Part shown: positions 1 to 11,140 of the stretch, piece after piece
How positions within the stretch are numbered: position 1 is the first letter of the stretch
How the letters are laid out: every line of letters begins with the position of its first letter
NCBI GenBank assembly: GCA_035935655.1
Contig: DASYWW010000040.1
Location: 62,001 to 126,000, forward strand
Length of the DNA: 64,000 nucleotides
Source: Candidatus Bathyarchaeia archaeon
GTDB taxonomy: Archaea > Thermoproteota > Bathyarchaeia > 40CM-2-53-6
Reading direction: 5' to 3'
Notes under the pieces: generated by a model
Database searches by the model: none
What the model saw: the letters and a program-made list of their open reading frames with translations, nothing else
Told to the model about the DNA's origin: nothing
Position numbers and translations under genes: made by a program

Positions 1-1916
1 ACGCAGTCAACCCGGCAACACGAACCGTGGTGGACCTGGGTTGTTCAGGAATCGGCGGAAACATTACTCGAACCGGGGGTGTTGCCAGCACGTTCATGGT
101 GGGGTGGACTTACACCGGCGAGCTCCTGAATACTCTCGCGTACCCGAAGCTCTCGATCTCCAACCCAGGCATCACAATCAAGTATGCCTACGACGGTCTA
201 GGGAGAGTTCTGAACGTAACAAATCAGGCTAGTCCGGCTTACTACGCAAGGTCCTTCACATATTACCCAAACGACAAAGTCAAAGGCCTCCAGTTCGGAA
301 ACAATCTAATCCAGAACTATACTTACGACGGCATGTCGAGACCCTCAGCCATCACATTGAGCGGCGCTACGATCATGAGCCTCAACTATGCACATAATAA
401 AACCGGGACCCTGGCTAGTGTCACAGGACAGGTTAACGGTGCGAATGTGAATGAGCAGTATCGCTACGACCCTCTACAACGATTGACCAATTCCAGCACT
501 ACAAGCGGCGGATCGACCACAATTTCATGGTACGAGTACGATAACCTTGGAAACCGAGTACGACAGAAACTTAACGACACAATCACCGCTTACACTTACA
601 ACTCTATCAATGAGCTCACTGCATCTTCTGCACCAGGGACAAGCATAGCCTATAGTTACGACGCCAACGGAAACCAACTCGCGCGCAATTCCACTACAAT
701 TGGGACGACTCACTGGACCTACATTTGGGATGCTTCCAGCCGTCTCCAGAAGGTGAAAAATGACGCCGGAGTGCTAGGGGTGTACGCGTACGATGGCCAT
801 GGGCGGAGAGTCGAGTCCTCAGAAGCCTCCACAACATTCTACGCGTACATCAGAACAGAGGTCATGTACGAGAACATCACCGGCGTTGGCGGGACAGACT
901 ACCTCTTCGCAGGAGCATTCAGAATCGCCAAGTTGACAAGTGCATCGGTTAACTATTATCACTCTGACTCACTGGGAAGCACGCGTCTAATCACAAGCTC
1001 GACGGCCGGCACAGTCTTCCGCAATGGCTACCAACCCTTCGGCCAGGATAACGGAACGCCAACCGGATCGGAAACTTATAGGTTCACGGGCAAGCCTTAC
1101 AGTTCGTCGACTGGTTTGTACTATGACTACCAGCGCTGGTCCGATCCGTCTACTGGAAGATTCATCTCATCCGATCCAATCCGAGGGCATCGACTAGCTC
1201 CTCAAAGCCTCAATCCTTACCTCTACACTCAGGATGATCCTACTTCAGTCACCGATCCCACAGGGTTAGACGGTGGTTTCGGCGCTGACAATAGGTGCGA
1301 GAAGCTCCACGCCTGCCCTCACCCAACTCTAGCGCAGATTCAACAGGAGGAGACCGTCATGTGGATCTTTCTGGGATTCGAGGCGGGTTTAGGGCTTGCG
1401 TTCGCTTGCGTGGTCGCCTGCCCAATAGTCATCGGCGCATTGAGCACCGCCGGGACTGGGTGTGAAGAAGATCCGGAGATCTGCACCCCAGCAACCGATC
1501 CGCCTCCACCGATTACCGACCCTACCCCGCCGACCGCTGTAGACCCTACTCTCCCCAGCATCGAGCCTAACCCTGTCGCAACAGAGGTGACTGATGGAGG
1601 TTTTTCTGCGACTCGTTCAGGAGTCGGCAGCTTTACAAACCTCGGTAAGGAAATTGGAGTCAAGCACCTTGACGCGATTTCCAAGGCTGGAGGATTTCAA
1701 AGGTACCTGGGGCTAATTCAAGATACGGTCGAAAACGGAGTTGACACTACCTCGATCGAGGGTACCAATCCATCTTATTTGACGCTGAGAAACATCGCGT
1801 CCAAGTTCTTTGTAGTTGCTGAGCCACAATCAGGGACCATAGTAACTGCGTTCTATAACACACCGTCCGGTCCGCTAGCTTCGCTCTGGAAAATGATGAT
1901 CCTAGTGCCGGATTGA
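1..1916 (+). CDS. RHS/YD-repeat protein with nuclease-like C-terminus (5' partial)
   Basis: The frame is open to the left edge, so the N-terminus lies outside the window. About eight YD repeats are visible (YAYDGLGRV, YTYDGMSRP, YRYDPLQRL, YEYDNLGNR, YSYDANGNQ, YAYDGHGRR), followed by an RHS core signature (YYHSDSLGSTRLI, GLYYDYQRWSDPSTGRFISS) ending at DPTG. After the core come a hydrophobic stretch, a Pro/Thr-rich linker and a C-terminal domain of about 100 residues with KHLDAISKAGG, QDTVENG and a late strand GTIVTAFYN. That pattern resembles barnase/EndoU/colicin/RelE-type nuclease domains of polymorphic toxins; the toxin call is inference. RHS cores usually encapsulate a variable C-terminal toxin. 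The next gene begins 2 nt after the stop and is the immunity candidate. The RHS assignment is secure. Confidence 0.85.
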   Translation, partial: AVNPATRTVVDLGCSGIGGNITRTGGVASTFMVGWTYTGELLNTLAYPKLSISNPGITIKYAYDGLGRVLNVTNQASPAYYARSFTYYPNDKVKGLQFGNNLIQNYTYDGMSRPSAITLSGATIMSLNYAHNKTGTLASVTGQVNGANVNEQYRYDPLQRLTNSSTTSGGSTTISWYEYDNLGNRVRQKLNDTITAYTYNSINELTASSAPGTSIAYSYDANGNQLARNSTTIGTTHWTYIWDASSRLQKVKNDAGVLGVYAYDGHGRRVESSEASTTFYAYIRTEVMYENITGVGGTDYLFAGAFRIAKLTSASVNYYHSDSLGSTRLITSSTAGTVFRNGYQPFGQDNGTPTGSETYRFTGKPYSSSTGLYYDYQRWSDPSTGRFISSDPIRGHRLAPQSLNPYLYTQDDPTSVTDPTGLDGGFGADNRCEKLHACPHPTLAQIQQEETVMWIFLGFEAGLGLAFACVVACPIVIGALSTAGTGCEEDPEICTPATDPPPPITDPTPPTAVDPTLPSIEPNPVATEVTDGGFSATRSGVGSFTNLGKEIGVKHLDAISKAGGFQRYLGLIQDTVENGVDTTSIEGTNPSYLTLRNIASKFFVVAEPQSGTIVTAFYNTPSGPLASLWKMMILVPD

Positions 1917-1918
1917 CG

Positions 1919-2578
1919 ATGACAACCATCACGTTTGCAGTAGATGGACCGGAATGGGACTCGCTCTACGAGGATCCCGAAGACAAGAATAGTCATCATC
2001 GCGTACATGAGGGTGTGACAATTGAAGCTCAGTTGAACTTATGGCCCAACCTCATTCTCTATCATTGGAACAAGCGTACCCTAATCGATGAGTTGGCGTT
2101 TTTAGGATTTGACCCAACGAGGCTGACACCAGAACGTAGTATTGTATCCCTCAAGGCGGGTTCAAATCTTTACCTTGTTTCTGGTATAGCACGCCAGGTC
2201 GTCAGACGCTCTTGGGCCACCGATTCTAAGAAACAACGCATCTACACCCTTCTCGATTGCGGATTGCCAGTCGTGATTTCCGAGGACGTGAAGGAAAGTA
2301 ACTCGAGCGCTTTTCTCGAAAGAGAGGGCGATTGCCTCGTCGCAATCTGCTTGCTCTTTGGTTCCATCGCGTTTTCCGGAGTGCCGTTCCGAACTCCTGT
2401 CACTTGCATGGTTAAGAAAATCACGCCTCTGAAGATAGTCCCTCGCTCTACAATCCTGGAGGCTGAGTTGCAACCCGGACAAGTCGTTCCCACTTTAAGA
2501 ATCTCCTACCACGGCGAGCAAACTAACACTGCGGAGTTCCTGAACTCTGACAAGAGACTAAGCAAAAGGCAAGGGTGA
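1919..2578 (+). CDS. Hypothetical protein, candidate immunity partner of the RHS protein
   Basis: ATG lies 2 nt after the TGA of the RHS gene, so the two are probably co-translated; an in-frame TTG at 1913 overlaps that stop but is less likely. The product is about 219 residues, soluble, mixed alpha/beta in look, with no signal peptide, membrane segment or family motif I recognise. It has an acidic N-terminus (EDPEDK) and a basic tail (SDKRLSKRQG). In polymorphic toxin loci the gene directly after the toxin normally encodes the cognate immunity protein; that position is the only evidence for the role. Confidence 0.6.
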   Translation: MTTITFAVDGPEWDSLYEDPEDKNSHHRVHEGVTIEAQLNLWPNLILYHWNKRTLIDELAFLGFDPTRLTPERSIVSLKAGSNLYLVSGIARQVVRRSWATDSKKQRIYTLLDCGLPVVISEDVKESNSSAFLEREGDCLVAICLLFGSIAFSGVPFRTPVTCMVKKITPLKIVPRSTILEAELQPGQVVPTLRISYHGEQTNTAEFLNSDKRLSKRQG

Positions 2579-2665: not shown

Positions 2666-2998
2666 GTGTCCGAGCAAATATTTGTTTACCGGGGAGCTAA
2701 TTTCGGGGGAAAGTCCAAGTTAAAGGGATCATATTCCCAAAGGAGACGTTTCTTTGCCGAAAGCATTACTTGTCGAGCACTGGACAAGGCCGATTTCGAA
2801 ACGAACCGTCTGAAATTTCGATATTCGTGGTATGAAGTCGTGAGGGTTCACGCATATCCCCCGGGCTACCATACACTTTCATTTTCGTGTCTCACGAGGG
2901 ACGGGGCGCGGGAAAAACAGACCCCCCTGGTGGGGGTCGAGGGTTTTCTTGGTGGTTTGGTTGAGAAACGTATGGAAATGTCGTTGTCAGACGTTTAA
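2666..2998 (+). CDS. Doubtful hypothetical ORF running through a repeat element
   Basis: A GTG-initiated frame of 110 codons between the immunity candidate and the leftward zinc-ribbon gene. The first 70 codons look moderately protein-like, but residues from about 73 on are encoded by the GC-rich hairpin element at 2881-2938, and the stop lies in a palindrome. No family is recognised. It may be a fragment of an older immunity or toxin gene, or not coding. Otherwise, 2579-3247 holds only the two DNA elements listed separately. Confidence 0.2.
   Translation: MSEQIFVYRGANFGGKSKLKGSYSQRRRFFAESITCRALDKADFETNRLKFRYSWYEVVRVHAYPPGYHTLSFSCLTRDGAREKQTPLVGVEGFLGGLVEKRMEMSLSDV
2881..2938. repeat. GC-rich hairpin repeat, copy A
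   Basis: A block of about 58 nt ends in a perfect 7-bp hairpin: GACCCCC at 2920-2926, loop CTGGT, GGGGGTC at 2932-2938. The block before it (tcacgaggg, then ggggcgcgggaaaaacag) recurs on the opposite strand at 54096-54153 with about 80-85% identity. Read on the minus strand it is a hairpin followed by TGTTTTT, like an intrinsic terminator, and could end transcripts from the leftward gene at 3248-3592. The conserved part extends well past the T run, so a simple terminator does not account for all of it. Confidence 0.7.
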
Positions 2999-3003
2999 CG
3001 TCT
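2989..3003. promoter_or_regulatory. 15-nt palindrome AGACGTT-T-AACGTCT
   Basis: Perfect 7-nt arms around one base, with a third AGACGTT at 3030-3036. It sits between the hairpin element and the leftward gene at 3248. An operator is possible; there is no direct evidence for a bound protein. Confidence 0.35.
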
Positions 3004-3247
3004 CATTGGTTTCATGGGATTTCAGGCTTAGACGTTTTTCTACGCTATGTCAGAAAACACTGGGCCAAAACTACCCCCTAAGATGCCTTAAGTGTAACGT
3101 GCACCCGCGTCTATCTGGCCGCTCTGGACATGCTGTGTTGCCATGGGCTCGATGCCTTGGCAAGAGACCACCGTGGGATCCAGAAAAGTATGCTTATTCT
3201 GTGAAGAAAGATCCGGCAAGCCAGCAATCCGGTGTTCTTGAATAGCT

Positions 3248-3592
3248 TCAGTATAGCCCTGGCTTTGGCAAGGGTCCACCGCAGTGGGCACATTTTTCTT
3301 TGAAAGGCTGACTCGTGTTACAATAGGGGCACACCACAAGTATCGTATCGGGAGGCGGAGGTGGCGGAAACGCGGTCTGACCGTTTAGAGGTCGCTGAAT
3401 TCTTGGGGCGCCTGCCCTCGCGGCCCTGGCAAGAGCGCCGACTGCTAAAGCAAGGAAGATAAGGAAAAGTGGTATTACGAGCACGGAACTGGCAGCTGCT
3501 CCACCATAGGCTGAGAGGTTGGCGAGGATGAAAATCAATAAGAAAACTAGGACAACTCCTCCTTGGAGAGCCTTTCGGGCTAGGGCGCTCAA
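3248..3592 (-). CDS. Small membrane protein with C-terminal zinc ribbon
   Basis: 114 residues. Two hydrophobic segments (about residues 12-27 and 33-55) are followed by a basic stretch, a Pro-rich linker (FPPPPPP) and a C-terminal CPYC...CAHC knuckle pair, which should bind one zinc on the cytoplasmic side. This layout is common among archaeal proteins of unknown function and recurs in this window at 25748-26308 and 32476-33032. No function can be assigned. Confidence 0.75.
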   Translation of the reverse strand: MSALARKALQGGVVLVFLLIFILANLSAYGGAAASSVLVIPLFLIFLALAVGALARAARAGAPRIQRPLNGQTAFPPPPPPDTILVVCPYCNTSQPFKEKCAHCGGPLPKPGLY

Positions 3593-3648: not shown

Positions 3649-4693
3649 TCACCAAGATAATTGGGTCGGGGCAGAGTCCTCTTCGTGCCGGAAGAGTCCT
3701 CGATCGCCCCTCAAGACCAGCGAGTATTCGGTGAGAGGACCGTCGCAGAGAAAATATTCTTTTCTCAACCCCCATGACCCGAGGATACTCGATGAGAATT
3801 CTGCGCCGAGTCCCTTTGCAATTTCCTGAAGCTGTCCCTCCTCCATCGAACTCTTCGTTATCAGGCAAAGCTCGAAGCTTCGCATTATAGGATTCCAAAC
3901 ATTACTCGCAGCCCCCTCCTCTACCTCTACCTCCGTAATCATTTCCTCGGAAACATATTGTCCTATCGTGCGCTTCATTACTAGCGAGAGTTTCTTGAAT
4001 GGTCCTGCTGGGTTCGAAATCGTGGCTGATAAGCCTCCAGCCGAGCTAGGCGTGACCGTCGCACTGGCCACCACACCATCGGCGGTCACATTCAAGGTCT
4101 GCTTTGCCGGCGAGAGTTTGAGGGGGAACCAAGGCGATCGAAGGATGAAGATCCAGATGTCCTTTCCCATCGACACGTCAACGTGTATCGCAGACGCAAG
4201 CATAATGCCCTCCCACCGAGCCCGTAAAAGCCCCGTGGCAGGAACAAGTTCTCCCAGATTGAAGGTCAAGAGCTGGCCTCCGTCGTTAGTATTTACCTCC
4301 TCGGGCTGGATGCGCGTCGGGTCCTGTATTGAAGGATCAAACTGCCCATATCGAAGATTTTCCGGCAGAGACCCAATGGAACCAGAGGTTCGCTGTGCCG
4401 GTGTAGGCGGCTCTAAGCCTTATTCCATGCTCGGACCTGAGCTTGACGATGGGCTTGCCTCCGGCAATAGCGTACTCTGCATCAATTCCATTAACGAGGC
4501 TGAAGGCTGGCAAGTGTCCGTTTTGAGACCGATGATTCGCGTTTATTAGCCCTGCAGTACCTCCAGCAGAGAAAGTCAGTGAAGCCTCACCAATTATCGT
4601 GGTTTCCACGAGGTCGAACCTTAGCGGCACCACGCCTGTTGGATCAGGCGGATTTCTCGAACCTATTCTTGATGCTTCCAATAGAAAGTGCAT
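3649..4693 (-). pseudogene. Hypothetical protein gene interrupted by a frameshift
   Basis: Two adjacent reading frames read as one protein. The upstream part (ATG at 4693) is coherent through SEHGIRL; that frame then drifts to a stop at 4337. The second frame is open from about 4419 and reads EPPTPAQRTSGSIGS onward, continuing without an obvious start through 4269 to the stop at 3649. Dropping one A near 4411-4413 joins GIRL to EPPT and gives one protein of roughly 345 residues. I recognise no family; there is no clear signal peptide or membrane span. It may be real decay or a sequence error. Confidence 0.6.
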
Positions 4694-4806
4694 GCTGCTA
4701 ATCCTATCAGAACTCGTTGATTGGACGCGTTCAAACCGTTGGACCTTTAAGATGACTATCTGTCAATCGGTGCAGTGTTTTCATTACGCGAATTACAAAT
4801 GATGAA

Positions 4807-5174
4807 CTGATTAGGAAAGCGCGGTCTGTGATAAGGCCAAGAGAAAAACTAGGCATGGATTTGTTGTCGGGGAGGTGGGTTGTGCGCTAGTCACGGATAG
4901 TGGGAGTATCTATCTCGGTACTTGCATTGATACCAGTTCGGGAATGGGGTTTTGCGTTGAGCAAAATGCCATTGCAGCCATGATTACACACGGCAAGCGC
5001 AGGATAGAGAAGATCGTGGCAGTTTCGGAAATGGGAATACCTGCTACGCCTTGCCGAAGATGCCGGGAGTTCATCCACCAAATCCATGAGAAAAATTTGG
5101 CCACAGAAGTGATTCTCGGACAGAATAGAGTGATGAAACTAAGCAAACTGCTTCCATATCGGTGGGTTGAATAG
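4807..5174 (+). pseudogene. Cytidine deaminase-like protein, frameshifted near the N-terminus
   Basis: The intact part (GTG 4875 onward) has the deaminase fold signature: GCALVTDSGSIYLG, a zinc site CVEQNAIA (Cys plus catalytic Glu) and PCRRC, ending in LLPYRW. Upstream, another frame reads LIRKARSVIRPREKLG and LLSG, which fits the first helix of the family. One extra G in the run GGGG at 4869-4872 would join SG to EVGCALV. The true start is uncertain (CTG 4807 or further upstream). Family members deaminate cytidine or related bases such as blasticidin S. The family call is secure; whether the gene works is not. Confidence 0.7.
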
Positions 5175-5250
5175 ACCGCTTGCTTCTCGCGATGATCAAA
5201 CAGAGGGCCTCGCCCGAGGCTCTGTATAGTGTTCAGGAGGCGAGGGTATG

Positions 5251-5814
5251 CTATGCGCTCTTCAGTTTTTCCCGATAGTGCTCGCGTAGCTTTACGATCT
5301 TTGGCGCGATCACTACCTGGCAGTATGGCTGTCTCGCGTTATTCTTGAAATATTCTTGATGGTAGTCTTCGGCCTTGAAAAAGGCCTTGAAGGGGACAAC
5401 CTCGGTTACAATTGGCTTCTTCCAGACCTTCGCGGCGTTCGTTTCTTTGATGACCTCTTTTGCCACGGTCTCTTGTTCGGGATTATGGTAGAAGATTGCG
5501 GATCTGTATTGTGTTCCGACATCGGCTCCTTGCCGATTCAGCGTCGTTGGGTCATGTGTTGTGAAGAAGATCTGCAGGATCTCCTTGAACGAAATCTGGT
5601 TGGGATCGAAGGTTATCTGGATTGACTCCGCGTGTCCCGTTGTTCCAGTGCATACATCCTCGTAGGATGGGTCCGGAATTTTTCCGCCAGAATAGCCTGA
5701 TTCTACCATCTCAACGCCCTTCAATTGGTCGAAGATTGCTTCCGTACACCAGAAACATCCTCCACCTAGGGTTGCAACCTCTCGGTCGCTGCCAGAAGTC
5801 CTTGGTGAATCCAT
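5251..5814 (-). CDS. msrA: Peptide methionine sulfoxide reductase MsrA
   Basis: 187 residues, the usual length. The catalytic motif GCFWCTEA is at about residues 19-26, with [19 protein letters not shown] and EDYHQ all in place. It reduces methionine-S-sulfoxide in proteins and free methionine, using the first Cys of GCFW as nucleophile and later Cys residues or thioredoxin for recycling. An AGGAG Shine-Dalgarno precedes the ATG, and the gene lies 18 nt downstream of the aldo/keto reductase, so the pair is probably an operon with a repair or redox theme. Confidence 0.95.
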
Positions 5815-5832
5815 ACTCTTTTTTTCTCCTGG

Positions 5833-6879
5833 CTAATTCTTCCTAGTCCACGCCGGTTCCGATACGGGGAAAGTCCGCCCTGAACTCTGTCTTTCAATCA
5901 TCCAGTTCGGATACTGGATCCGATGTCTCGTGAGCTCGTCTAATTTCCCGATTTGGTCGCTAGAGAGGTTGACATCCAGTGCGCCTAGGTTCTCTTCGAA
6001 TTGCTCCATGTTCTTCGCTCCAACAATAACAATGTGGCCCTTTGACAGCAGCCAGGAAAGAGCTACTTGCGCTGGAGTTGCATCTTGTTCCTTGCCCACC
6101 TGCTTCACACGTTCTACGATATCGAAGCCTGTCTGTTCATCGAAGAAGGGAAAGAATAGTCCACGGTTGCCGGCCCTAGTCCCGGGAGGTTTCGTTTCCT
6201 TAGAGTATTTTCCGCTGAGGACGCCGCCATGTAGCGGGCTCCAGACAAGGAGGCTCATCTTGGTATAATTGAGAAACGGAAGAATCTCATGCTCAACGTC
6301 CCGGTTGAGAAGACTGTAGTTCATCTGGGCGGCTTCATACCTGGAGAAGCCGCGTTCTTGGGCTCTCGCTTGAACGGTGGCCATTTGCCAGGCAGTAAAG
6401 TTCGATATGCCTGGATAATTTACGAGGCCTTCTTCGACAAGGTCTTGCATTGTCTCGATTGATTCGTCCAGTGGGACGTGCGCATCCCAGGAATGGAACT
6501 GGTAAAGATCCACCCAACTCGTGCCGAGTCGAGCTAAACTTTGACGGATCGCTTGGCGAATATGATGTCTAGACAGGCCTATCTCGTTGATTCCAGTCCC
6601 GCTCTTTCCTCTGACCTTGGTCGCGATCAGAATCTTGTCCCGGTACGGTTGGAGGGCCTTTCCAAGGGTCTTCTCTGACTCTCCTTCGTCGTACACGTCC
6701 GCCGTGTCGAAGAAGTTGATGCCTGCATCAATGGCGCGGGACACCATTTTGTTGACTGTTCCCTGATCAAGTCCCCCGAGCTTCCAAGTGTCTTTCTCGC
6801 CAAAAGTCATCGCTCCAAGAGCAAGGACAGAGACGTCGACGCCCGTGCTGCCTAGTGAAGTGTAATTCATGTCCGCCAT
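5833..6879 (-). CDS. Aldo/keto reductase
   Basis: 348 residues with the family pattern: MNYTSLGSTGVDVSVLALG at the N-terminus, NFFDTADVYDEGESE (catalytic Asp and Tyr), KVRGKSG (catalytic Lys), DLYQFHSWD, and a C-terminal NADPH-binding part (VIVGAKNMEQFEENLGAL). It belongs to the AKR group that acts on aldehydes and ketones; the substrate is not predictable. It is transcribed leftward with msrA. MNYTSLGS is the conventional start, four residues into the reading frame (ATG about 6870). Confidence 0.9.
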   Translation of the reverse strand: MADMNYTSLGSTGVDVSVLALGAMTFGEKDTWKLGGLDQGTVNKMVSRAIDAGINFFDTADVYDEGESEKTLGKALQPYRDKILIATKVRGKSGTGINEIGLSRHHIRQAIRQSLARLGTSWVDLYQFHSWDAHVPLDESIETMQDLVEEGLVNYPGISNFTAWQMATVQARAQERGFSRYEAAQMNYSLLNRDVEHEILPFLNYTKMSLLVWSPLHGGVLSGKYSKETKPPGTRAGNRGLFFPFFDEQTGFDIVERVKQVGKEQDATPAQVALSWLLSKGHIVIVGAKNMEQFEENLGALDVNLSSDQIGKLDELTRHRIQYPNWMIERQSSGRTFPVSEPAWTRKN

Positions 6880-7373
6880 GTTCTCATCAAGGGCCAGAAA
6901 CGTTACTTAAATGTGAAAAATCCATCATCCCCTGAGAGGCAGGAACCAAGGTCAAGCCATACCCTAGTTTCTCATGTTGTTCCATGGATCGATGGCTGTC
7001 TAGACCTGTCGATTCGGAACGCAAGTCCAACGATATACTCCGAGGCGCAAGGGATCTATAGCTGGTCAGACTGCAATAGCGCGAGCCTGGAAGTTGTTGG
7101 GAGAGAAGAAGATAACTCCCGCAGATCGTGCGAAGCTTCCAGCTGATGTTCTCTCAGTTTGGAAGCAGCATAGGCCAAGGGTGCTAGAGGTCCTTCCTCG
7201 GAACAAAGCAATACGGTTCGCAGAAGAAGAGATCGACATCTCTCAAAAGTCACAAGACCACCGTTGCCACCATAATCACCTACTCCCATGAGTAGCGTCA
7301 AAAATATTCATATCGCACCCGAATTTGGGTACCTTTCAGGTATTGGCCGTTTCCCGAGTCCATCCCTGATCCC
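6880..7373. other. About 490 nt without a confident gene; one protein-like remnant
   Basis: On the plus strand a frame is open from 7004 to 7291 with no ATG. It reads SIAGQTAIARAWKLLG, then EKKITPADRAKLPADVLSVW, and has a TTG at 7094. The residue mix from GQTAIARAW to RFAEEEI looks coding, and the tail does not. I recognise no family. It may be a short gene or a decayed remnant. Confidence 0.3.
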
Positions 7374-8036
7374 ATCAAGGGAGTAATCTTCGACCTAGAC
7401 GGGACCATTGTGGACAGAGACCGTCTTGTTGTTCATTGCACTCTTGAAGTTGCCAAGAGGCTGCTCGGTAAGACCCTAAACCCTGATCGAATCTCTTGGG
7501 GCCTCCACGAGACAGATACCATTCTAAGATTGACGCGTCAACTCTCGCGGGATTGTTCCGAACAAGCACTCGACGCCTACACTGATTGCCTGAAGACTAA
7601 CCTGAAGATGTGGGAGGTGTTCCCAGGAATCCCAGGACTGTTAGAGAGGCTCAGAGAATCCGGCAAGCAGATTGCCTTGGTGACATCGGTTCCGAACAGA
7701 ACCCTAGTCCGTGAAGCTTTGGAGGGTCTAACCCTGAAGCAGTACTTTGCAGCGGTGGTGACAGGGGAGGATGTGACGCGTTACAAGCCGGACCCCGAAG
7801 GCATCCAGATGGTCCTTAAGAGAATGGAGGTTCGGCCGAGCAGGGTGATCATGGTTGGCGATTCGGCCTCCGATATTCAAGCCGGGAGGAAGGCGGGAGT
7901 AATCACTGGCGCAGCACTCTGGGGTTCGAAGGCGATGAGGGACTTGTGGGGCCACATAGCCTCACAGGCAAGGCCCGATTTCGAATTTCAAACAGTGGAA
8001 GAACTTGACCACTTTCTGTTTCCAGCTCGGGTCTGA
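7374..8036 (+). CDS. HAD-superfamily phosphatase, start unclear
   Basis: Motif I is IFDLDGTIVD, motif II VTSVPN, and motif III/IV KPDPEGI...MVGDSASDIQAG, which defines a phosphoglycolate phosphatase/beta-phosphoglucomutase-type HAD hydrolase with a helical cap. The first usual start codon (GTG 7410) falls after the catalytic Asp and would remove it. The frame is open upstream with no ATG, GTG or TTG nearby. The family normally begins M(I)KGVIFDLDGT, so initiation near ATC 7374, or a base error just upstream, is likely. Substrate unknown. Confidence 0.8.
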   Translation: MKGVIFDLDGTIVDRDRLVVHCTLEVAKRLLGKTLNPDRISWGLHETDTILRLTRQLSRDCSEQALDAYTDCLKTNLKMWEVFPGIPGLLERLRESGKQIALVTSVPNRTLVREALEGLTLKQYFAAVVTGEDVTRYKPDPEGIQMVLKRMEVRPSRVIMVGDSASDIQAGRKAGVITGAALWGSKAMRDLWGHIASQARPDFEFQTVEELDHFLFPARV

Positions 8037-8270
8037 TCAATCCGACCTACGAACGCCCCCAAAGTAGTGATGAACCGGCAAGAACTTGGGCCGGGAATCC
8101 ACGCTATCTTAGGAAAAATAGGCCTCGAACAGGCTTTAGCTGTAAATACTTGGTCGAGCTGTTCCAGTGGAAGTCAACATGACACTCCAATGTACGTTAC
8201 CTATTTTAGTAGAATAGCTCTAATACTCGCTACCCGATTTACGCAAAAAAGTAGGTCACCCAGCGCAACC

Positions 8271-9071
8271 ATGTCCCGGATCGACGAAAACCTCCATCGA
8301 ATACTCAAAGACCACGGGCTCACAGAATACGAGATCAAAACCTACCTCAAACTAGTCTTCGACGGACCCGCCACGCCCTTCGAGATCAGCGAAAGCGTAC
8401 AAATCCCCTACGCGCGAGTATATGGGACCCTTGAGGGATTGGAGAAAAGAAAGTGGATCAGAGCAAGACCAGGAAGACCAGTCGTATACGAAGCGAATCC
8501 ACCGAGGTCAGTTGCAGAACTAGAGCTGGAACAGAAACAGTCTGAAATGGTCGCTTTCACGAACTTGATGAAACAGGATCTCCAGGCAATCTACGAGCGT
8601 CGCGAAGTAGTCAAGAACATTAGCCTCTGGGTCATCCACGGTGGTGATAAAATCTCTGACAAGATTGGCGAGATCGTGTCGACCGCGAAGACGCGGGCCT
8701 ACCTCCAGTTCGCCACCCTGATCCCGAAAGATGTCGACGATCTTCGTGCGCCTTTGAAGGCCGCTCGTGAAAGAGGCGTATCGGTGAAAATCCTCTCGTT
8801 TCTCAATCCTCGTTTTGTTGATCAGAAGAGCCTGTCACTGCTTTCGGACGAGGCAGAGGTTGGGGTGATACAGGAGTCCAACGAAGAGGCTCCGAAACCC
8901 TACAATGTCTGCGCTGTTGATGGCAGGGACACTGTTCTCACCTATCTCTGGAATATTGAAACTCCCAACGAGCCAGGGTCGCGGATCGCTTTTCGATTAT
9001 CAGATGAAGAATTCGCCGGAGTCATGGACAGATATTTCGAATATTATTGGTTGAAAGCCCGTAGGATTTGA
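8271..9071 (+). CDS. TrmB-family transcriptional regulator
   Basis: ATG 8271 gives the typical start MSRIDENLHRILKDHG; longer upstream frames lack family similarity. Residues about 12-80 form the TrmB winged helix (LTEYEIKTYLKLV, ISESVQIPYARVYGTLEGLE). A coiled segment follows, then a C-terminal PLD/TrmB-type effector domain (AYLQFATLIPKD, RERGVSVKILSF). TrmB proteins sense sugars or other metabolites and repress or activate sugar and central metabolic genes in archaea. It lies about 5 kb from the Entner-Doudoroff cluster, so a regulatory link is possible but unproven. Confidence 0.85.
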   Translation: MSRIDENLHRILKDHGLTEYEIKTYLKLVFDGPATPFEISESVQIPYARVYGTLEGLEKRKWIRARPGRPVVYEANPPRSVAELELEQKQSEMVAFTNLMKQDLQAIYERREVVKNISLWVIHGGDKISDKIGEIVSTAKTRAYLQFATLIPKDVDDLRAPLKAARERGVSVKILSFLNPRFVDQKSLSLLSDEAEVGVIQESNEEAPKPYNVCAVDGRDTVLTYLWNIETPNEPGSRIAFRLSDEEFAGVMDRYFEYYWLKARRI

Positions 9072-9129
9072 TCTAGAATATCCAGAGCCTAGCGTGGTGC
9101 GTTGAGATATGAAGATGGATGGAAAGGAT

Positions 9130-9522
9130 CTAGTTTGTCGGGGAGGGAGGCCTTTGCGGACTCGGGGCTCCTGGCTGTCGTGAATCCAGCTGCGCCATAA
9201 GCATCATGAGTTTCCGGGTCTCGTCAAGTCGCCTCAGCATGCTTTGCATTTCGTTCTTGTAATAGTCCCGTTGCTGACTGTACTCTTGCTCGCTTAGTTC
9301 GCCGGAACTGTACTTGCCTTGCAACGCAAGATATCCACTCAATGTGGTTCCGCCGAGTTGTTCGCGAAGGTTCGACAAGCTCTTTCCGACTATGTCGTTG
9401 AGCTGGGCTGCGCGTTCGCCGAGTGCCCGGCTAACTTTCGCTATCTCTTCCTTGATCATTGCTGTTCGTTGTCGGAAGCCGTTAAGCTCCACGACTACTT
9501 TCTCTATAGGTATTTCACTCAC
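9130..9522 (-). CDS. Coiled-coil protein, paralogue of the gene at 54548-54955
   Basis: 130 residues, mostly helical: an N-terminal helix (IEKVVVELNGFRQRTAMIKE), a middle helix, a second coiled coil (LSEQEYSQQRDYYKNEMQ), MLMAQLDSR, then a Pro-rich disordered tail. It begins GTG AGT GAA; the stop of a tiny upstream frame (MWPVSKLVVTSYGALS) abuts the GTG, which may allow coupling. A TATA-like gataaaat lies about 120 nt upstream. Size and helix layout loosely recall small ESCRT or CdvA-like helical proteins, but no homology is claimed. Confidence 0.75.
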   Translation of the reverse strand: MSEIPIEKVVVELNGFRQRTAMIKEEIAKVSRALGERAAQLNDIVGKSLSNLREQLGGTTLSGYLALQGKYSSGELSEQEYSQQRDYYKNEMQSMLRRLDETRKLMMLMAQLDSRQPGAPSPQRPPSPTN

Positions 9523-9694
9523 GACAGAGCACCGTAACTAGTAACGACAAGCTTGGAGACGGGCCACATAGCCGCACCGTAACCGAAGACGGCGAGTAGA
9601 AGTGACCGGTCAAAGCCAATCTCCTATTGTATTCGTCATTTTATCGGTCCGTAGGAGACAAGTTTCGAATCTAAGGAGGGCCTTTGTTTATGGC

Positions 9695-10681
9695 CTAGAC
9701 TCTTCTCAGATAGGCTCTGGAGTATTCTCGTCTGCCGGCAGCGAGGAGGAAACCGAGGAGGATTAGGGCGGCGATGGATGATCCGATTATGAGACCGGTT
9801 GTGACTAAGGGTGTTGTTCCGAAGAGTACTCCGAGCAGCATGCCCTGACTGATCCTGTTTCCTATAGGATATGATAGACCGATGGTCACAGTGTTAGATG
9901 TAGTCTTTGTAGATGTCCTGACGGCTACCTGCTGATCGTTGACCGTGCCTGTAGGGGTCCATGAGACGAATTGCTGATTGCCACCGGACTTTACTGTTAC
10001 GCTATTGGAGCCTGTCGCGGGACCGTTTCCAGTGCTACCAGTCATAACATCGGTCATCAAAGCGATATGATCTGCTGGCTTGGGGAGGAGTGTCGAGTTG
10101 ATCGATACTCCGACTATGGTGGTTGTGGGAAGAACGGTGGCGCCGTTGACTTGGGCGGTCGTTGGGAAGGTTTCGGTTGTAACTGTGAGCAAACCGTCGG
10201 CAGAGCGCGAGACGAGCATGTATCCTTGCTTTCCATCTTGTGATTCTACGCTTCCCACGATCGGGCTTGCGTACTTTTCGGCCTGGAGATCGATTGTCTG
10301 GACTACCATATCGTGTCCGGGATCGTAGACTCCATTCCCGTCCGTATCGTTGAACAGGATGAGGCTTGCATACGAGATTCTGAGTGCTTGATTGGTCGGG
10401 TTCTCAATCTCTCTGACCTCATTGGTGCTTGATGATTCCATGTGCAACGATATTCCGTTGACGGAACTAAACAACAGCCCATAGTTGTTCTCTACAGTCC
10501 GGTTCTGGACCGTTGAGTGGATGAATATCGTCTGGTTTGCCTCGGCGATCGTGTCTTCTCTTTCCTGGCTGTTCAGGCCGTCTTCGCCGGTCTGATCGGC
10601 CGAGGCGTGAGGATAGGCTATCAAGAAAAGGGGTGTTGTCAAGAGCCCCAACAAAATGAGGCTCAGGCTGAGGGTTTTCAG
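9695..10681 (-). CDS. Exported, C-terminally membrane-anchored surface protein (CTG start)
   Basis: The first usual start (TTG 10654) cuts the signal peptide. A CTG at 10679-10681 overlaps the TGA of the upstream gene (CTGA) and gives (M)KTLSLSLILLGLLTTPLF, a standard signal peptide ending at about ASA. The ectodomain is beta-rich, with NRTVENNYG, a DTDGNGVYDPGHD calcium-binding loop and many Thr/Ser. A single C-terminal membrane span (about 290-310 of the long form) is followed by a basic tail RREYSRAYLRRV. Probably a cell-surface or sensory protein co-expressed with the Asp-rich protein. No family recognised. Confidence 0.75.
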   Translation of the reverse strand: MKTLSLSLILLGLLTTPLFLIAYPHASADQTGEDGLNSQEREDTIAEANQTIFIHSTVQNRTVENNYGLLFSSVNGISLHMESSSTNEVREIENPTNQALRISYASLILFNDTDGNGVYDPGHDMVVQTIDLQAEKYASPIVGSVESQDGKQGYMLVSRSADGLLTVTTETFPTTAQVNGATVLPTTTIVGVSINSTLLPKPADHIALMTDVMTGSTGNGPATGSNSVTVKSGGNQQFVSWTPTGTVNDQQVAVRTSTKTTSNTVTIGLSYPIGNRISQGMLLGVLFGTTPLVTTGLIIGSSIAALILLGFLLAAGRREYSRAYLRRV

Positions 10682-11052
10682 ATTCCTATCGCCTGCTCCA
10701 CTTTGGTTGCTACATCCGTCATTCCGGTACCAGCATCGCTTGTATCACCCGTATCGCCGACCTGGTCTCCGGTGGTGCTATCGTCGTCCGGTCCCGACTG
10801 GGAGTCTGCTGTATCATGAGCGCCTGTCTGGGCTGTGCTGCTGTCGTCCGTGTCGCCCACTTGGCCGTCGTCGTGGTCGCCCGCTTGAGTGTCACTATGG
10901 TCATCGTTTGCCTGGACATCATCGTTTTCCGGTACGTTGCTGGTCTTCGTGAGTTTGATAGGGGATGCGGCGTGCGCGAATATCAATGTGCCTGCTGTGA
11001 CGGCCATCAGTCCGAGTAGCAACAGTGGCAGTATATTCTTCGTCTCAAACAC
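10678..11052 (-). CDS. Exported Asp-rich low-complexity protein
   Basis: 124 residues. A signal peptide (about residues 8-28, LPLLLLGLMAVTAGTLIFAH, cut after ASA-like AHAA) precedes a region dominated by Asp, Gly, Thr and Ser with loose repeats of GDxDDGQVGDTDD and TGDQVGDTGD. Such acidic stretches often bind calcium or act as hydrated spacers. Its stop overlaps the CTG start of the anchored surface protein, so the two are translationally linked. Another 89 nt upstream is the membrane-bound regulator. Function unknown. Confidence 0.75.
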   Translation of the reverse strand: MFETKNILPLLLLGLMAVTAGTLIFAHAASPIKLTKTSNVPENDDVQANDDHSDTQAGDHDDGQVGDTDDSSTAQTGAHDTADSQSGPDDDSTTGDQVGDTGDTSDAGTGMTDVATKVEQAIGI

Positions 11053-11140
11053 CTCTATCGTGAAGATGGCGCTTGGAGGATAGATATTCGGTGTGTTCGA
11101 GAAGGGCCGAACTCGGGACTTTTGGCATGGTCTTCTCCTC

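What the first reader, a model, noticed from the sequence alone, without database searches (positions are those of the whole stretch)
1..2578. RHS polymorphic-toxin-like locus in an archaeal chromosome with a linked putative immunity gene
Seen: YD repeats, an RHS core ending DPTG, a Pro/Thr linker, then a domain of about 100 residues unlike the repeats, and a second gene 2 nt later. Known: RHS proteins in bacteria encapsulate variable C-terminal toxins paired with downstream immunity genes; archaeal cases are rarer. Inference: the C-terminal domain (KHLDAISKAGG ... GTIVTAFYN) resembles BECR-type nucleases and the next gene is its immunity protein.
Basis: partly seen in the sequence, partly recalled or inferred. 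Interest (0 to 1): 0.7.

Follow-up and report, generated by a model that had tools for sequence, protein, structure and literature searches.

The report
Archaeal RHS toxin with candidate immunity gene
A soil archaeon related to Bathyarchaeota carries the end of a huge secreted RHS protein whose tip looks like a swappable toxin, followed 2 bases later by a gene that probably protects the cell; the toxin type is unknown, and neither protein matches any family searched.

Summary
The sequence observation is right. Window 3-1916 is the last 637 codons of an RHS gene: YD repeats, an RHS core ending DPTGL, a hydrophobic stretch, a Pro/Thr linker and a unique C-terminal domain of about 110 residues. 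A second ORF starts 2 nt after the stop (1919-2578). The gene begins about 6.7 kb upstream of the window. It is split there by a one-base frameshift in this assembly.

The strongest support for "polymorphic toxin" comes from relatives. 13 of 21 genomes of the family carry the same core with different tips. The nearest relatives keep the core and the first ~70 post-core residues and then diverge completely. Among 23 loci, all 4 pairs with related tips also have related downstream genes (0 of 100,000 shuffles). Some of these tips match known nuclease-toxin families (LHH, DUF2380; Tox-REase-7 just below cut-off).

The BECR-nuclease claim is not supported: no profile, sequence or fold match. "Immunity" is likely by analogy but not shown. 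The three homologues of the downstream gene lie without an adjacent RHS tip, although one sits near a contig end and orphan immunity genes are usual in such systems.

Verdict: a new member of a known kind, with an unclassified toxin-immunity pair.

The parts
3..1253 (+). 3' part of the RHS/YD-repeat shell, including the RHS-associated core (about 1029-1268); the gene continues upstream of the window
   Evidence: PF05593 9.7e-15; TIGR03696 2.1e-17, residues 343-422; upstream ORFs
1173..1268 (+). core-end motif with two DP motifs (SSDPIRG ... TDPTGL); resembles the region where bacterial Rhs proteins cut off their toxin
   Evidence: Conserved in most of the 27 cores compared; motif PxxxxDPxGL and Asp autoproteolysis described in PMC8636562. 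Cleavage itself not tested
1356..1442 (+). hydrophobic segment VMWIFLGFEAGLGLAFACVVACPIVIGAL (possible membrane-translocation segment)
   Evidence: Read from sequence; first ~70 post-core residues conserved with G019:C11, 46% identity
1485..1574 (+). Pro/Thr/Asp-rich linker
   Evidence: Sequence
1584..1916 (+). variable C-terminal domain (candidate toxin), about 110 aa, stop codon at 1914-1916; no relative found
1919..2578 (+). candidate immunity gene, 219 aa (ATG 1919; alternative TTG 1913 would overlap the RHS stop)
   Evidence: ORF; homologues in 3 genomes of the same genus at 49% and 35-37% identity

Best explanation
This is the business end of an archaeal RHS polymorphic toxin and its partner gene. 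A giant protein exported by an N-terminal signal sequence carries an RHS shell, a core-end motif, a hydrophobic segment and a linker, and ends in an exchangeable toxin domain. By analogy with bacterial Rhs proteins the domain is cut at the core end and enters a neighbouring cell. The protein from the gene 2 nt downstream binds the domain in the producer's cytoplasm and blocks it. Shown here: the architecture, the exchange of tips on a common core, and the joint inheritance of tip and downstream gene in other loci of the same archaeal family. Inferred: that this particular tip is toxic, most likely an enzyme acting on nucleic acid, since the other assignable tips are nucleases, and that this particular downstream gene is its immunity gene.
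For: RHS core and repeats. RHS cores in 13 of 21 genomes of the family. Against G019:C11, identity is 42-72% through the core, 50-55% through the first post-core residues, then 8-22% in the tip. Related tips always have related downstream genes: 4 of 4 pairs among 23 loci, 0 of 100,000 shuffles. Example: G006:C125 and G008:C37 share tip and downstream gene (56% identity) but not linker. Other tips match toxin-type families: LHH nuclease 1.7e-8, DUF2380 6.2e-15, Tox-REase-7 3.8e-5 just below cut-off. Extra displaced core+tip copies occur in tandem in G006:C125 and G018:C213, as in bacterial Rhs loci. A hydrophobic N-terminal signal-like segment is present in G000, G013 and G019. The candidate immunity gene starts 2 nt after the RHS stop.
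Against: No relative of this tip was found, so its joint inheritance with this downstream gene could not be tested. The downstream gene's homologues in G002, G012 and G016 are not preceded by a detectable RHS tip. The RHS reading frame is broken upstream of the window in this assembly, so this copy may be inactive. No delivery apparatus was sought.
Confidence: 0.72

Rival explanations
1. Polymorphic toxin with a BECR-fold RNase tip and cognate immunity protein.
For: Low-confidence model order helix-helix-strand-strand-strand, a KH on helix 1 and a TIVTAFYN strand; BECR toxins occur in archaeal polymorphic toxins (PMC3482391).
Against: No profile match at E<=10. PBECR2, DUF4258 and Ntox50 profiles do not hit the locus. 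Fold search not significant; RelE appears only at probability 0.06-0.08.
Confidence: 0.2
2. The tip is a toxin, but the downstream gene is an unrelated or resident gene (for example a nucleic-acid-binding beta-barrel protein) and not its immunity gene.
For: Homologues stand away from RHS tips, two of them in the C-terminal half of a 363-residue ORF next to an orc1/cdc6-like gene. The weak model has strands 94-170 in an order like an OB fold.
Against: 2-nt spacing in the same operon. In the other loci the gene at this position varies with the tip. The OB reading has no sequence or fold support. Immunity genes commonly occur alone.
Confidence: 0.2
3. A decayed RHS gene or a cell-surface RHS protein with a non-toxic variable end; the frameshift marks a dying copy.
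For: One-base frameshift upstream. The copy on C60 has an in-frame TAG and further frameshifts, and fragments remain on C39 and C12.
Against: The 3' 1484 codons, including the tip, are open. Relatives have intact ORFs of 2582 and 2885 codons. Related tips are nuclease-like.
Confidence: 0.15

Closest known systems
Bacterial Rhs polymorphic toxins (YD shell, DPxGL core end, variable CT, downstream immunity gene)
   Same: Shell, core-end motif, abrupt divergence after the core, partner gene immediately downstream, displaced core+tip copies
   Different: Host is an archaeon; no PAAR or T6SS link seen; N-terminus is a signal-like segment; tip and partner match no known family
Archaeal polymorphic toxin systems (Zhang et al. 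2012; Makarova et al. 2019, the latter known only through citation)
   Same: Multidomain exported protein with variable toxin end and linked immunity gene in archaea
   Different: In the passages I read, the 2012 tables name only Euryarchaeota for archaea. This lineage groups with MAGs named Bathyarchaeota/Crenarchaeota; I found no paper describing RHS toxins there
VARTIG modules of Thermococcales (PMC8416519)
   Same: Long protein with hypervariable end and variable downstream genes
   Different: Ig domains, no recognised toxin domain; the loci here have RHS shells and nuclease-like tips

Membership tests
RHS polymorphic toxin | YD/RHS repeats and RHS-associated core | tested here: met
   PF05593 9.7e-15; TIGR03696 63.4 bits, cut-off 32.5
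RHS polymorphic toxin | core ends in PxxxxDPxGL with aspartyl autoproteolysis | tested here: inconclusive
   PTSVTDPTGL present; cleavage cannot be tested here
RHS polymorphic toxin | same core joined to different C-terminal domains in relatives | tested here: met
   Identity 50-55% through residues 321-400 then 8-22% against G019:C11; tips
RHS polymorphic toxin | tip and downstream gene inherited together | tested here: met
   4 of 4 related-tip pairs, 0 of 100,000 shuffles. Met for the system, not testable for this pair (no homologue of the tip)
RHS polymorphic toxin | tip is toxic and partner protects | not testable with these tools
   Needs experiment
BECR-fold nuclease | profile similarity to a BECR family | tested here: not met
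   No match at E<=10
BECR-fold nuclease | N-terminal helices followed by four-stranded meander | tested here: inconclusive
   Model order HHEEE but pLDDT 37; fold search not significant
Known immunity protein family | profile match to a described immunity family | tested here: not met
   No match in Pfam, NCBIfam, PADLOC, PHROGs

The most novel reading that the evidence does not exclude
This soil archaeal family carries a working, lineage-wide RHS toxin arsenal exported by signal sequences, with tip-immunity cassettes that recombine on one core. This locus holds a toxin family and an immunity family that have not been described, and the immunity family also persists as orphan, fused genes in neighbouring species.
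Probability: 0.4. Interest if true: 0.55.

Novelty: new member of a known kind. Interest (0 to 1): 0.42.

Why it matters
Polymorphic toxins are well studied in bacteria but were described as rare in archaea and, according to a 2021 paper, those predicted there had not been characterised by experiment (PMC8416519). A family of uncultured soil archaea in which most genomes carry RHS cores with swapped tip-partner cassettes gives a comparative test bed for archaeal antagonism. It also gives a candidate toxin-immunity pair that can be tested directly in laboratory strains.

Tried and rejected
Searching for relatives of the tip in viral contigs, plasmids, phages, 85k species genomes and 398 genomes of the phylum gave only chance-level matches; the best-looking ones in the order lay in unrelated proteins such as prephenate-dehydrogenase-like and ATPase ORFs. 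PPR-protein hits in PDB are repeat-summing artefacts, with no stretch passing on its own. Reading the partner as an OB fold: the strand order and a LDCGLP...GDxLxAxGxLFG pattern suggested it, but no sequence or fold search supports it. Naming partner genes of the REase-like tips as Imm52: not supported by Pfam or NCBIfam. A relation between the N-half of the fused 363-aa ORF and the partner gene: not supported. A third gene at 2666-2998: no homologue in the other genomes of the family, and its 3' half overlaps a dispersed DNA repeat, so probably not part of the system.

Full report
WHAT IS THERE. The window begins inside a long open frame that ends at 1916. Its product has PF05593 RHS repeats (9.7e-15) and the RHS-associated core TIGR03696 (63.4 bits against a cut-off of 32.5). 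The core ends in PTSVTDPTGL. Then come a hydrophobic segment (1356-1442), a Pro/Thr/Asp-rich linker (1485-1574) and a C-terminal domain of about 110 residues (1584-1913). The stop codon is at 1914-1916 and an ATG opens the next ORF (219 residues) at 1919, 2 nt later.

THE WHOLE GENE. The window lies at C40:62001-126000 of a 2.5-Mb, 65-contig assembly. Upstream, two overlapping ORFs of 1378 and 1561 codons together make one RHS protein: a signal-like hydrophobic N-terminus, a long extracellular-looking region, a weak DUF6531 match, and the repeats. The frames join at ...ATAACAGGAACGGGTTTTCCAATTCATTC. The relative G013 reads ...ITGSGFSNSFIQSGAPGP without interruption, so this copy has a one-base frameshift. 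Whether it is a real mutation or an assembly error cannot be told here. G019 and G013 have uninterrupted ORFs of 2582 and 2885 codons.

THE ORGANISM. Records matching the homologues of the downstream gene, whose genomes are in the same genus as the window's assembly, are named Crenarchaeota archaeon 13_1_40CM_3_52_17 and Candidatus Bathyarchaeota archaeon BA_22 and BA_4. From general knowledge these names point to soil samples. I did not run separate tests for contamination of contig C40.

THE SYSTEM IN RELATIVES. RHS cores occur in 24 of 257 genomes of the class, of which 13 are among the 21 genomes of the window's family. I read the tips and downstream ORFs of 27 cores in that family. The window core is 60% identical to that of G019:C11 over 335 residues. 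Identity stays at 50-55% through the first ~70 post-core residues and then falls to 8-22%. G008:C37 shares the first 16 post-core residues at 94% and then also differs. Conversely G006:C125 and G008:C37 share tip and downstream gene (44% and 56%) but not the linker, and G006:C125 copies 10307 and 8685 share linker but not tip. Among 23 loci with both parts, four pairs have related tips and all four have related downstream genes; no shuffle in 100,000 reached this. Relatedness among genomes is not controlled in that shuffle, but unrelated tips within the same genomes argue against a simple phylogenetic effect. Tips in the family include an LHH nuclease, a DUF2380 domain and a sub-threshold Tox-REase-7. 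Tandem extra cores with their own tips occur in G006:C125 and G018:C213. This is the pattern of polymorphic toxins.

THE TIP. No relative of the window's tip was found anywhere searched. AlphaFold on the single sequence gave pLDDT 37 with the order helix, helix, strand, strand, strand; the fold search was not significant. PBECR2 and Ntox50 profiles found nothing in the genome, and DUF4258 found only two weak places elsewhere. The BECR assignment is thus a resemblance without support. A nucleic-acid-acting enzyme remains my best guess, because the tips that can be assigned in the family are nucleases.

THE DOWNSTREAM GENE. It matches no profile library. Homologues: G002:C51 (49% identity over about 200 residues; contig starts 448 nt upstream, and no tip is visible there), and the C-terminal half of a 363-residue ORF in G012:C83 and G016:C25, beside an orc1/cdc6-like gene (named by eye, no profile run). 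The N-terminal half of that ORF recurs at 79% identity in G019:C19, at the contig's end. I count it only as weakening: these genomes carry RHS cores elsewhere, and stand-alone or fused immunity genes are a known feature (poly-immunity, PMC3482391). The model for this protein is of low confidence and mostly beta.

HOW IT MOST LIKELY WORKS. By analogy with bacterial Rhs proteins, where the toxin is enclosed by the shell and cut at the DPxGL motif (PMC8636562), the archaeal protein would be exported, the tip released at the core end and moved across a membrane with the help of the hydrophobic segment, and would then act in a neighbour, while the downstream protein protects the producer. Export, cleavage, entry, toxicity and protection are all inferred.

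COMPARISON AND NOVELTY. RHS polymorphic toxins are long known; archaeal cases were described as rare (PMC3482391), and a 2021 paper states that those predicted in archaea had not been characterised by experiment (PMC8416519). I found no paper describing them in this lineage, but the library does not hold Makarova et al. 2019. I therefore file this as a new member of a known kind with an unclassified tip and partner.

Noticed in passing
L010 (G000:C60:15000-34000), RHS ORF 4333-10197 and 10258-11121: A second RHS gene in the same genome has an in-frame TAG at a conserved Tyr position, frameshifts near its N-terminus and in its tip, and an inserted stretch of about 150 residues (AAGTLITMADHSLVPVQNLKVGD...YDVYDTAPGDYIANGY) that looks like a Hint/intein-type domain but matched no Pfam family.
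   Followed up: partly
L009 about 11,460 (contig C40 about 59,460): The frameshift in the window's RHS gene falls on GGGTTTT, which has the form of a -1 slippery heptamer; the relative G013 reads through in frame, so a one-base deletion or assembly error is the simpler reading.
   Followed up: partly
window 2880-3260: Dispersed repeat: 11 other partial copies in the same genome (contigs C15, C46, C12 and others), 74-90% identical, apparently intergenic.
   Followed up: partly
L066 5850-6938 (-), L067 2392-3480, L116 6389-6910: 363-residue ORF beside an orc1/cdc6-like gene joins an unknown N-terminal half, also found in G019, to a homologue of the candidate immunity protein.
   Followed up: partly
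L071 (G006:C125:1-14000), L084 (G018:C213): Arrays of several RHS core ends in a row with their own tips and downstream genes (up to four cores in G006:C125), like displaced toxin cassettes.
   Followed up: partly
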